Origin: Akkermansia muciniphila | GTDB taxonomy: Bacteria > Verrucomicrobiota > Verrucomicrobiia > Opitutales > UBA953 | Direction of reading: 5' to 3' | Assembly: GCA_943331445.1 (NCBI GenBank) | Contig: CALQLO010000019.1 | Coordinates: 1-36,573, forward strand | Length of the DNA stretch: 36,573 nt | Shown here: piece after piece, positions 31,013 through 34,334 of the stretch | Numbering within the stretch: the first letter of the stretch is position 1 | Layout of the letters: the number at the start of each line of letters is the position of its first letter | Made by a program: the position numbers and the translations under genes | The notes under the pieces: model-generated | The model's database searches: none | Seen by the model: the letters and a program-made list of their open reading frames with translations, nothing else | Told to the model about the DNA's origin: nothing

Positions 31013-31930
31013 ATGGCAGAAAACGTCCTTATCCTTGGAACCGGTTGCGCCGGCCTCACCGCCGCCATCTACGCCGCCCGTGCCGGCCTCTCGCCCTTAG
31101 TGCTCGAAGGCGGCCAACCAGGCGGCCAGCTGACCACGACCTCCGAGGTCGAGAACTTCCCGGGCTTCGTCCACGGCGTCGACGGCAACGAGCTCATCAC
31201 GAACATGAAGGGCCAGGCGGAACGCTTCGGTGCCAGGTTCGCCTGGGATCGCATCGACTCGGTCGATTTCTCCGGCCCCATTAAGAAACTCGTCGGCGGC
31301 GAAGCCACCTACGAGGCCTCGGCTGTCATTATCGCTACGGGCGCTTCGCCGCGCTTCTTGGGCATCCCTGGCGAAAAAGAATATTACGGCGGCAATGGCG
31401 TCACGACCTGTGCGACCTGCGATGGCGCTTTCTATCGCGACGTTCCCGTGGCGGTCGTCGGCGGCGGTGACTCGGCTTGCGAGGAAGCCCTCTTCCTCAC
31501 GCGCTTCGCCTCCAAGGTCTACCTCGTGCACCGTCGCGATTCTTTCCGCGCTTCCGAAATCATGGTGCAGCGCGTCAAGGCTCACCCGAAGATTGAGCTC
31601 GTGCTCAATGTCGTTCCGCTTGAGGTCGTTGGCGAAGGCAAAGTCCACACCCTGCGCGTGCAGGAGAAGTCTGGTGCCAAGCGCGATCTCGCCGTGAAGT
31701 GCGTCTTCGTTGCCATCGGCCACGTGCCCAATTCCCAAGCCTTCACGCCTGCTTTAGAGGTCGATGAAGGCGGCTATTTCATTGCCGGCGCGAACACCGT
31801 CAGCACCAAGATTCCCGGCGTCTTCGTCGCGGGTGATTGCTCTGATCATGTGTATCGCCAAGCGATCACCGCCGCTGGCATGGGTTGCCGCGCCGCGATT
31901 GAAGCGGAACGCTGGCTCGCCGGTCACTGA
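31013..31930 (+). CDS. trxB: Thioredoxin reductase
   Basis: FAD enzyme that uses NADPH to reduce thioredoxin. The 305 residues have the FAD-binding start [19 protein letters not shown] (7-25), the redox disulphide CATC (133-136, followed by DGAFY), the NADPH site [10 protein letters not shown] and HRRDSFRAS for the 2'-phosphate, and the C-terminal FAD block [10 protein letters not shown]. The first glycine motif is GTGCAG rather than the usual GSGPAG, placing an extra cysteine (Cys12) beside the FAD phosphate. The ATG at 31013 is preceded by a TTGACT box at 30941-30946 but no convincing -10. It diverges from secA (124 bp) and its 3' side opens into the hairpin-rich island. Confidence 0.95.
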
Positions 31931-31931
31931 G

Positions 31932-31952
31932 CGTCGCGGCTTAGCCGCGACG
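31932..31952. repeat. Perfect 9-bp hairpin just after trxB
   Basis: CGTCGCGGC, loop TTA, GCCGCGACG. It starts 2 bp after the trxB stop and could act as a terminator, but no T-tract follows on the plus strand. Its 9 + 3 + 9 geometry equals that of the REP-like hairpins, though its feet differ. Confidence 0.75.
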
Positions 31953-31957
31953 AGGGG

Positions 31958-31970
31958 CAGGTGGGCAAGG
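31958..31970 (-). repeat. 13-bp island repeat, inverted copy
   Basis: CAGGTGGGCAAGG matches, in inverse orientation and at 12 of 13 positions, the word CCTTGCCCACGTG found at 32346-32358 at the other end of the island. Confidence 0.55.
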
Positions 31971-31994
31971 GGTTTGAGCCCTGTCTTGAGGGTG

Positions 31995-32015
31995 GGGCGC
32001 CACGGCGTGGCGTCC
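31995..32015 (+). repeat. REP-like hairpin, copy 1
   Basis: Stem arms GGGCGCCAC and GTGGCGTCC with loop GGC; one G-T wobble. The 5' foot is GGTG (31991-31994, one base shorter than in the other copies) and the 3' foot GTTTG. Confidence 0.75.
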
Positions 32016-32086
32016 GTTTGAGGCCGAGGGTGCGGGTATGTTCGGATCTTAGTTAGGATCTCTTACTTCTGTGTGCGCTTGCGAAC

Positions 32087-32107
32087 GGACGCGACGCAGT
32101 CGCGCCC
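32087..32107 (-). repeat. REP-like hairpin, copy 2
   Basis: Read on the minus strand: arms GGGCGCGAC and GTCGCGTCC, loop TGC, one G-T wobble at the same place as in copy 1. The 5' foot is GGTAG and the 3' foot GTTCG. The CAC/GTG step of copy 1 is GAC/GTC here, a compensatory change. Confidence 0.78.
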
Positions 32108-32188
32108 CTACCCAAGGCAACCCCGTCACCCGAGAATGAATGTCATCATCCGGTTCCCGGCCCTCCTTTGGGTGCTGTCGTTAGGTAG

Positions 32189-32209
32189 GGACGGCTCTCT
32201 GAGCCGTCC
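32189..32209 (+). repeat. REP-like hairpin, copy 3
   Basis: Arms GGACGGCTC and GAGCCGTCC pair perfectly over 9 bp with loop TCT. The 5' foot is GGTAG (32184-32188) and the 3' foot GTTCG (32210-32214). Confidence 0.8.
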
Positions 32210-32246
32210 GTTCGCCGCGCGAGGTCCGGATGTCGTTCGGTTCAAC

Positions 32247-32267
32247 GGCGGGCTCGGAGAGCCCGCC
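32247..32267 (-). repeat. REP-like hairpin, copy 4
   Basis: Read on the minus strand: arms GGCGGGCTC and GAGCCCGCC, perfect over 9 bp, loop TCC. The 5' foot is GGTAG and the 3' foot GTTGA. Together with copy 3 it forms an inverted pair 37 bp apart. Confidence 0.8.
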
Positions 32268-32288
32268 CTACCTCTTGAATCCATGCAA

Positions 32289-32320
32289 AGCAGCAAGGGC
32301 GCTTGCGCGCCCCTGTTGCT
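32289..32320. repeat. Long 14-position hairpin of a different type
   Basis: Arms 32289-32302 and 32307-32320 pair at 13 of 14 positions (one A-C mismatch, one G-T wobble) around the loop TTGC. It lacks the GGTAG foot, so it is a second repeat class in the island. Confidence 0.7.
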
Positions 32321-32329
32321 TTCACTTCC

Positions 32330-32358
32330 CCTTGTCCACGTGTCACCTTGCCCACGTG
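32330..32358 (+). repeat. Two direct copies of a 13-bp word
   Basis: CCTTGTCCACGTG (32330-32342) and CCTTGCCCACGTG (32346-32358) differ at one base and are separated by TCA, a 16-bp period. The core CACGTG is itself palindromic. Confidence 0.65.
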
Positions 32359-32364
32359 CCCACT

Positions 32365-32391
32365 CGAAGTAATCGCTCCGCGATTACTTCG
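32365..32391 (-). terminator. Perfect 12-bp hairpin over the ilvB stop
   Basis: CGAAGTAATCGC and GCGATTACTTCG pair without mismatch around a 3-nt loop. The ilvB stop codon TAA (32386-32384) and the preceding Lys codon lie inside the stem. There is no T-tract, so it may protect the mRNA 3' end or be an inserted hairpin rather than a classical terminator. Confidence 0.6.
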
Positions 32392-34189: not shown

Positions 34190-34278
34190 GGTCTTAGGGG
34201 GCAGGTCGAGCCTGCAGGGAATGGGTTAGAAAAGGAAGCGGGCTAACGGGGGCAAGTGTGAATAAGTGGCTTGAATTA

Positions 34279-34334
34279 GGGGTAGGGGTTGGGGTAGGAA
34301 AAGTCAAAGGGGTGGGGGTAGGGGTAGGGGCGGG
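34279..34334 (+). promoter_or_regulatory. G-run cluster, potential G-quadruplex upstream of ilvB
   Basis: Eight G-runs of 3-5 bases occur in 56 bp on the plus strand; 34309-34334 holds five runs separated by loops of 1-2 bases, an ideal G-quadruplex pattern. The plus strand is the template for ilvB, so the ilvB leader RNA would be C-rich here. The run pattern is seen directly; folding is inference. Confidence 0.55.

What the first reader, a model, noticed from the sequence alone, without database searches (positions are those of the whole stretch)
31931..32391. REP/BIME-like hairpin island between trxB and ilvB
In a window where convergent genes otherwise touch, this 453-bp gap plus the ilvB end holds seven stable hairpins, six with exactly 3-nt loops. 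Such density is not expected by chance. Position between converging genes and alternating orientation match REP elements in BIME arrangement, which in other bacteria are moved by single-copy RAYT (Y1) transposases. No such transposase is in this window, so it would have to act from elsewhere. The sequence words do not match the enterobacterial REP words I know.
Basis: partly seen in the sequence, partly recalled or inferred. Interest (0 to 1): 0.75.

Follow-up and report, generated by a model that had tools for sequence, protein, structure and literature searches.

The report
Mobile DNA hairpins between two genes
The gap between two genes of an uncultured Opitutae bacterium is filled by two pairs of small DNA hairpins that occur many times in its genome and belong with single-copy helper enzymes found in its close relatives; this is a new member of a known kind of selfish repeat (REP/REPIN), set between gene-end hairpins.

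Summary
In detail: seven hairpins, six with 3-nt loops, fill the trxB/ilvB gap, far above chance. They are two things. Four (31991-32112, 32184-32272) form two inverted pairs of GTAG-type REPs, i.e. REPINs/BIMEs. The family is dispersed: 79 island matches in the own genome; a hairpin model hits 54 of 55 genomes of the genus. The same hairpins flank single-copy ~150-aa tyrosine transposases (RAYTs): 48 of 50 distinct RAYT frames have one within 300 nt. RAYT and stem sequences diverge together (Mantel 0.50, 0 of 5000 permutations). RAYTs cognate to both window types exist in sister genomes but were not found in this assembly; one expected place is a contig break, another is empty. At the same gap relatives carry other REP classes or none. 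The other three hairpins are gene-end structures: one after trxB's stop, one over ilvB's stop, and a probable ilvB terminator. The stop-codon hairpins belong to a genus-wide module (hairpin, about 9 nt, GTGGGCAAGGTGACACGTGG) that I matched to nothing known. The REP part is a new member of the known GTAG-REP/RAYT kind; Opitutus terrae is already reported as rich in GTAG repeats.

The parts
31932..31952 (+). Gene-end hairpin directly after the trxB stop codon (TGA 31928-31930); not a REP
   Evidence: 9-3-9 stem, -12.9 kcal/mol; kept in G001, G011 and G004, with three compensated pairs in G004
31953..31972 (+). Degenerate copy of the gene-end tail (AGGGGCAGGTGGGCAAGGGG)
   Evidence: Inverted match to 32346-32361, 94% (I5); similar tail after trxB in G001, G011, G004
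31991..32112 (.). REPIN 1: inverted pair of REPs of the GCGCCAC/GCGCGAC type (class c10), feet outside
   Evidence: BLAST matches elsewhere in the genome; same stems flank RAYTs of G010 (L070) and G029 (L072)
31991..32018 (+). REP of REPIN 1, left; foot reads GGTGGGG where other c10 REPs have GGTAGGGG (the A is missing)
   Evidence: matches
32085..32112 (-). REP of REPIN 1, right; foot GGTAG
   Evidence: Hit of model R1 at 3.7e-8
32184..32272 (.). REPIN 2: inverted pair of REPs of the ACGGCTC/CGGGCTC type (class c12), feet outside
   Evidence: Strongest repeats; same stems flank RAYTs of G002 (L099) and G056 (L071); 32181-32275 folds as one long hairpin, -30.8 kcal/mol against shuffles -19.4 +/- 2.4
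32184..32211 (+). REP of REPIN 2, left
   Evidence: Hit of model R1 at 1.6e-8; it is one of the 27 sequences R1 was built from
32245..32272 (-). REP of REPIN 2, right
   Evidence: (I17)
32287..32322 (-). Probable intrinsic terminator of ilvB (GC-rich stem with A/T-rich ends)
   Evidence: Fold; one search lists one terminator-like site at 32297-32312 on the + strand, shuffles give 0.9; a similar hairpin lies downstream of ilvB in G001, G011, G004
32328..32364 (-). Gene-end tail of ilvB (CACGTGGGCAAGGTGACACGTGGACAAGGGG)
   Evidence: Exact core match 32336-32355; 32 matches with <=3 mismatches in the genome, reversed control 0
32365..32391 (-). Gene-end hairpin over the ilvB stop codon (TAA 32384-32386); not a REP
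   Evidence: 12-3-12 stem, z -7.7; three compensated pairs among G000, G001, G011; weakened in G004

Best explanation
The island is a gene-end spacer between converging genes into which two REPINs (inverted pairs of GTAG-footed REP hairpins of two classes, c10 and c12) have been inserted. REPs of this kind are substrates of RAYT (TnpA-REP), an HUH/Y1 single-strand transposase: it recognises the GTAG foot plus the folded hairpin on one strand, cuts nearby and joins the strand elsewhere, so that a single-copy chromosomal RAYT gene spreads non-autonomous hairpin pairs. Shown here: dispersion, pair geometry, RAYTs flanked by the same stems, RAYT/stem co-divergence, units present in one sister genome and absent in the other, conserved catalytic and foot-contact residues. 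Inferred: that these RAYTs actually move these REPs, and that G000 has or recently had the cognate RAYTs. The outer hairpins and tails are fixed gene-end features; I infer that the spacer tolerates REPs because it lies downstream of both genes.
For: Dispersion: 79 matches of the island in the own genome (40 of 115 first-look candidates scored, so a lower bound); model R1 has 159-169 hits in G000 and hits in 54 of 55 genus genomes at E<=0.1. In 154.7 kb of G000 (the window plus stretches chosen for REP matches): 117 GGTAGGG hairpins, 0 in Markov controls, 1 in reversed sequence; of 61 close neighbours 33 are pairs with feet outside, spacing peaks 88-91 and 107-126 nt. Twelve R1 hits in G000 share the top score; nine of these read letter for letter alike, the c12 REP. 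RAYTs: profile A1 finds two in G000 and strong matches in 28 of 55 genus genomes; of 50 distinct frames, 42 have a GGTAGG hairpin within 300 nt on both sides, 6 on one side, 2 on none; NCBIfam REP_Tyr_transpos is hit by 10 of 10 members of A1 at E<=0.001; PDB 4er8 TnpA-REP E 3.4e-18. Window stems flank RAYTs L070, L072 (c10) and L071, L099 (c12). Co-divergence: Mantel rho 0.497, 0 of 5000 permutations, 35 dereplicated RAYTs. Turnover at the orthologous gap in five genomes; 36-nt, 53-nt and 28-nt unit differences between G000 and G002, the first two abutting a GGTAGGG foot.
Against: No RAYT with the window's stem classes was found in G000. The place of G002's c12 RAYT falls between the end of G000 contig C40 and the start of C44, so it is undetermined; the C40 end carries another REP class. 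The place of G029's c10 RAYT is continuous and empty in G000. Three of the four RAYTs scanned score under NCBIfam's curated cut-off of 80 bits (63.8-77.4; one has 86.7). Some genus genomes have many REPs and no short RAYT found (G012: 136 hits, none), so copy number does not simply follow RAYT presence. The unit differences lie in spacers with other differences nearby, and at L109, L116 and L103 the scanned REPs are the same in both genomes. Movement was not observed; all genomes compared are assemblies, and short repeats invite misassembly.
Confidence: 0.92

Rival explanations
1. The whole island is one structured functional RNA (for example a 3' UTR or a small RNA between the genes).
For: Stable hairpins, and the outer hairpins are kept with compensated changes.
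Against: No Rfam family in the window at gathering scores. The inner part is replaced by other REP classes in G001 and G011 and has no GGTAGG hairpin in G004. The same inner units occur in many other places.
Confidence: 0.03
2. The pairs are ordinary MITEs: miniature DDE-type elements with GGTAGGG...CCCTACC terminal inverted repeats.
For: Pairs of preferred length (peaks at 88-91 and 107-126 nt) with inverted ends look like a MITE.
Against: Tandem and foot-inside neighbours are also common (18 and 10 of 61). Each end is itself a palindrome behind a constant foot. The stems match those flanking Y1/HUH transposases. I noticed no target duplication in the three unit differences apart from the foot itself. 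DDE genes were not searched for.
Confidence: 0.04
3. The window's REP classes are relics whose RAYTs were lost in this species; they spread before the loss and now only decay. (This is a variant of the best explanation and overlaps with it.)
For: No cognate RAYT found in G000; empty c10 RAYT place; one foot in the window has lost its A; many REPs in genomes without a short RAYT found.
Against: Unit-level presence/absence between G000 and its sister G002; nine of nine checked top-scoring c12 copies in G000 are identical over 28 nt, which does not look like long decay; the c12 RAYT place is unassembled in G000.
Confidence: 0.3

Closest known systems
GTAG super-family of REPs in Opitutus terrae and other bacteria (Di Nocera et al. 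2013, PMC3733652; passages seen)
   Same: GTAG at one end of a short palindrome; dimers with GTAG outside (their HH type) predominate; several families per genome; RAYT genes flanked by the repeats; O. terrae (Verrucomicrobia) named as highly enriched.
   Different: Here the foot is GGTAGGG in about 16 stem classes (my grouping) of one uncultured Opitutae genus; pair spacers are about 35-70 nt, whereas the paper gives 1-2 bp for O. terrae GTAG-17 and GTAG-19 dimers. Its consensus figures are not held, so identity with a numbered family was not tested.
REPINs of Pseudomonas fluorescens (PMC3116915, start of abstract in listing) and REP classes defined by RAYTs (PMC2817692 passages; PMC3686654 abstract)
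   Same: RAYT between two inverted REPs; REP and RAYT trees agree; classes defined by RAYT proximity; RAYT loss given as one cause of deviating REP numbers. That inverted REP pairs are the mobile unit (REPIN) is recalled.
   Different: Other phylum and other stem words; [quoted passage not shown]
Stenotrophomonas group 3 REPtron (TnpA-Sm; PMC8266576 passages)
   Same: Short perfect palindrome (8 bp, 3-nt loop) behind GTAG; close in form to the 9-3-9 hairpins here.
   Different: Group membership of these RAYTs was not tested by a tree with reference groups.
E. coli TnpA-REP (PDB 4er8) and its REP/BIME
   Same: Homologous protein over about 122 profile positions with H.H, WQ, Y and NP aligned.
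   Different: E. coli REPs have a bulge needed for activity (PMC8266576 passages); the hairpins here have none.

Membership tests
GTAG-type REP / BIME (REPIN) | Short palindrome with GTAG (or GTGG) at the 5' foot | tested here: met
   Three of four window REPs have GGTAG; the fourth reads GGTGGGG
GTAG-type REP / BIME (REPIN) | High copy number, dispersed | tested here: met
GTAG-type REP / BIME (REPIN) | Inverted pairs at preferred spacing | tested here: met
   33 of 61 close neighbours have feet outside; spacing peaks 88-91 and 107-126
GTAG-type REP / BIME (REPIN) | Extragenic position | tested here: inconclusive
   True for the four REPs of the window; not counted genome-wide (no gene calls)
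GTAG-type REP / BIME (REPIN) | Same stems flank a RAYT gene | tested here: met
   c10: L070, L072; c12: L071, L099; all four in other genomes of the genus
GTAG-type REP / BIME (REPIN) | Cognate RAYT in the same genome | tested here: inconclusive
   Not found in 2.41 Mb in 83 contigs; c12 place is a contig break; the place of the G029 c10 RAYT is empty
GTAG-type REP / BIME (REPIN) | Mobilised by the RAYT in vivo or cut in vitro | not testable with these tools
   Needs bench work; only presence/absence in assemblies was seen
RAYT (TnpA-REP) | HUH motif, catalytic Tyr, GTAG-contact residues | tested here: met
   H.H, WQ, FDHR.R, Y and NP invariant in the 18 rows of A2, aligned with 4er8; residue roles from PMC6006769 passages
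RAYT (TnpA-REP) | Flanked by two inverted REPs | tested here: met
   Hairpins on both sides in 42 of 50, one side in 6 (two of these at a contig start), none in 2 (L085, L087)
RAYT (TnpA-REP) | One copy per class and genome | tested here: inconclusive
   No class seen twice among the loci I classified; fragments at G050:C107, G040:C17 and G056:C129 were not classified
MITE of a DDE insertion sequence | Target duplications and a DDE parent | not tested
   No target duplication noticed; no search for DDE genes was made

The most novel reading that the evidence does not exclude
The fixed part of the island is itself an undescribed, genus-wide gene-end module: a hairpin at or just after the stop codon, whose sequence differs from gene to gene but covaries between species, then a spacer of about 9 nt and a G-rich tail of two 16-nt half-repeats (CACGTGGGCAAGGTGA / CACGTGGACAAGGGG). 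It would be either a lineage-specific 3'-end RNA signal or a second mobile repeat that homes to gene-end hairpins. REPINs then accumulate between two such facing modules.
Probability: 0.35. Interest if true: 0.6.

Novelty: new member of a known kind. Interest (0 to 1): 0.4.

Why it matters
It places REPIN/RAYT populations of great class diversity (about 16 stem classes behind one shared foot) in a compact, uncultured Opitutae lineage far from the gammaproteobacterial models. It offers natural experiments: stem change along with RAYT change, REP classes without a RAYT in sight, a RAYT of one class sitting at another's address. The gene-end module shows that part of such hairpin islands is not REP at all, and leaves a defined element with no function assigned.

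Tried and rejected
Rfam at gathering scores found nothing in the window. The Pfam Y1 model alone found in G000 only two long-type relatives and missed its two short RAYTs; a profile from short RAYTs of sister genomes was needed. The two long Y1 proteins of G000 were rejected as movers of the window's REPs: next to them lie GGGGTCAG palindromes; one GGTAGGG hairpin (a different class) lies about 240 nt from the end of the L009 gene, none near L010. Rejected: one structured RNA for the whole island. The terminator scan gives no significance (1 found, 0.9 in shuffles). The pairing percentage is biased because the hairpins were picked by a stem scan; I use from it only that stems are diverse. In one search the trxB query was translated out of frame and served only to locate; trxB ends in L013 and L017 were read from the DNA. 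In one search the 25 gene-end instances include orthologous copies of the same gene ends, so they are not independent; 8 of 25 lack a stem of 7 bp and 8 of 25 a long frame end. Model R1 also hits other genera of the order, so the foot-plus-hairpin plan is not genus-specific. Literature: one search lists the REP/RAYT papers; (repetitive extragenic palindrom + Verrucomicrobi) lists 4 papers, only PMC3733652 relevant by title; (REPIN, RAYT, vertical inheritance) adds none on Verrucomicrobia by title among the 12 of 31 shown; (Opitutus terrae + REP + palindrom) lists 5, none on these repeats by title; (Opitut + RAYT) lists 4, none on REPs by title; one search shows 8 of 12, none on the gene-end module by title. 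I saw listings, one abstract (PMC3686654) and passages (PMC3733652, PMC8266576, PMC2817692, PMC6006769), no whole paper.

Full report
OBSERVATION. The 453-nt gap between the converging trxB (stop ends 31930) and ilvB (stop begins 32384, - strand) holds seven hairpins, six with 3-nt loops. Four perfect stems of at least 8 bp lie in the 461-nt stretch against a mean of 0.043 in 300 Markov sequences (maximum 2); the rest of the window has two.

DISPERSION. Used as a query, the island has 79 matches in its own genome, itself included (G000, 2.41 Mb, 83 contigs; 40 of 115 first-look candidates were scored). In a sample of 19 genomes, all 13 of the genus (own included) match and none of the 6 of other families does. 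The matches fall into modules: query 251-343 (REPIN 2), about 60-190 (REPIN 1) and 391-436 (gene-end tail). A covariance model of the GGTAG-9-3-9 hairpin (27 sequences) hits 54 of 55 genus genomes and 19 of 52 genomes drawn from the order at E<=0.1, two of those 19 being of the own genus; so the plan is wider than the genus but patchy. In 154.7 kb of G000 (the window and 18 stretches chosen for matches) there are 117 GGTAGGG hairpins, 0 in Markov controls and 1 in the reversed sequence. Of 61 neighbours within 160 nt, 33 are pairs with the feet outside, 18 tandem, 10 feet inside; foot-outside spacings peak at 88-91 and 107-126 nt. Twelve model hits in G000 share the top score; nine of them, all that I hold, are the c12 REP letter for letter over 28 nt.

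TRANSPOSASE. The Pfam Y1 model finds 31 places in 20 of 41 genus genomes: long ~300-aa proteins and short ~150-aa ones. All 12 short ones among the loci scanned have GGTAGGG hairpins close by. A profile of ten short ones (A1) finds two in G000 (C40:7530-7976 and C32:16813-17247). In 55 genus genomes 35 match, 28 of them strongly (best E below 1e-40), seven only through the weak long relatives; 20 have none. After six-frame search of the held loci there are 64 frames, 50 distinct. 42 of the 50 have a GGTAGG hairpin within 300 nt on both sides, 6 on one side (two of these begin at a contig end), 2 on none (L085, L087). All ten A1 members hit NCBIfam REP_Tyr_transpos at E<=0.001; of four RAYTs scored against its cut-off of 80 bits one passes (86.7) and three do not (63.8-77.4). 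The profile A2 matches PDB 4er8, TnpA-REP, at 3.4e-18 with the H.H, WQ, Y and NP positions aligned.

PAIRING OF STEMS AND TRANSPOSASES. RAYTs carry class-specific stem words behind the same foot; I group them into about 16 classes. RAYT protein distance and stem edit distance correlate (Spearman 0.497, 35 dereplicated of 46 RAYTs, 0 of 5000 permutations reach it). The window's two types have RAYTs: c10 (GCGCCAC/GCGCGAC) in G010 and G029, c12 (ACGGCTC/CGGGCTC) in G002 and G056. G000's own two RAYTs carry other stems (ACAGCAC-cac; GGGCACGA-ctacgt with GGGCGGGGC-tac). In G000 the address of G002's c12 RAYT falls between the end of contig C40 and the start of C44, so its presence is open. The address of G029's c10 RAYT is continuous in G000, without RAYT and without GGTAGG hairpin.

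TURNOVER. At the trxB/ilvB gap, G002 shares REPIN 1 and the first hairpin of REPIN 2 (284 nt, 99%) and then leaves synteny inside the repeat; G001 has other classes (c8, and a c9-like/c1 pair); G011 has c2 and c4-like hairpins around a run of N; G004 has no GGTAGG hairpin. Between G000 and G002 at other shared places a 36-nt REP, a 53-nt REP and a 28-nt hairpin are present in one and absent in the other, the first two abutting a neighbouring GGTAGGG foot; these spacers differ in other ways too, and at L109, L116 and L103 the scanned REPs are the same in both. At one address G000 and, by the upstream flank, G022, G041, G004 and G011 carry a c3 RAYT, while G002 carries a c4 RAYT (53% identical to G000's) in the opposite orientation, with flanks 98.6% (276 nt) and 99.8% (942 nt) identical to G000. 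Otherwise most flank matches join RAYTs of one class, so classes tend to keep their addresses.

THE OTHER THREE HAIRPINS. The hairpins after the trxB stop and over the ilvB stop are kept in relatives with compensated changes, three pairs each (ilvB's is weakened in G004). They are followed by a tail of the form GGGGCACGTGGGCAAGGTGACACGTGGACAAGGGG (shortened after trxB in the window), then, for ilvB, by a GC-rich hairpin that I read as its terminator (no significance). The 20-mer core has 32 matches in G000 with up to 3 mismatches, reversed control 0. 50 of 55 genus genomes have matches (reversed control 2 of 55), against 3 of 30 others with one each (reversed control 5 of 30), so it is genus-specific in this sample. 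Of 25 distinct held instances, 17 have a stem of at least 7 bp in the 60 nt before (control 140 of 2000; 60 nt after: 6 of 25) and 17 follow the end of a long frame (control 182 of 2000); in 10 of the 17 the stem ends exactly 9 nt before the core. The instances are partly orthologous to each other.

MECHANISM. REPs of this form are substrates of TnpA-REP, which binds the foot and hairpin on one strand and cuts and rejoins single-stranded DNA (PMC8266576 passages). By homology the RAYTs here should do the same to their own class. That step is inferred; the differences are what it would leave behind. The spacer between two gene-end modules is, I infer, a place where insertions do little harm.

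HOST. Contig lengths tie genus members to public records: G022:C1 to BGOI01000001.1 (Opitutae bacterium BS6), G035:C149 to CAINMU010000149.1 and G052:C10 to CAIOAN010000010.1 (uncultured Opitutae). This is an inference from equal lengths and places; the window's own record was not named. Most titles name Verrucomicrobiota or Kiritimatiellota, a few others.

CHECK. 

VERDICT. New member of a known kind (GTAG REP/REPIN with RAYT), in a phylum where the kind was already reported. The unusual items are the number of classes behind one foot, the RAYT at another class's address, and the unexplained gene-end module.

Noticed in passing
G000 C5:110428-110706 (L009) and C8:340-564 (L010): Long-type Y1 proteins (303 aa; the second cut by the contig end) bordered by GGGGTCAG palindromes; they fit the TIRYT type with GGGGWSAS ends of PMC3733652 (passage).
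   Followed up: partly
window 31932-31972 and 32328-32391; 32 places in G000: Genus-wide gene-end module: stop codon, hairpin, about 9 nt, then a GTGGGCAAGGTGACACGTGG-like tail with 8/16-nt periodicity; no known family matched.
   Followed up: partly
G000 C40:7488-8035 against G002 C69 (L100, L210): RAYT of class c3 in G000 and, by the upstream flank, four relatives; class c4 in opposite orientation in G002 at the same address with nearly identical flanks: a RAYT module replacement.
   Followed up: partly
L051, L056, L055, L073, downstream end of the RAYT: The RAYT frame runs into the first two bases of the downstream REP foot, so the stop codon appears to be the TAG of GGTAG (offsets).
   Followed up: no
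window 34277-34330; L101 8176-8198; L203 about 2775-2915; L017 about 1700-1770: Spacers hold degenerate short-unit tandem arrays (TAGGGG hexamers; CGGTTAG/CCGCTAA heptamers in inverted halves; GGTAYM-like hexamers).
   Followed up: no
   Followed up: no
L011 from 1784 (G002 C204): G002 leaves the trxB/ilvB synteny right after the first hairpin of REPIN 2, inside a REPIN-like spacer: recombination at the repeat, or a chimeric contig.
   Followed up: no
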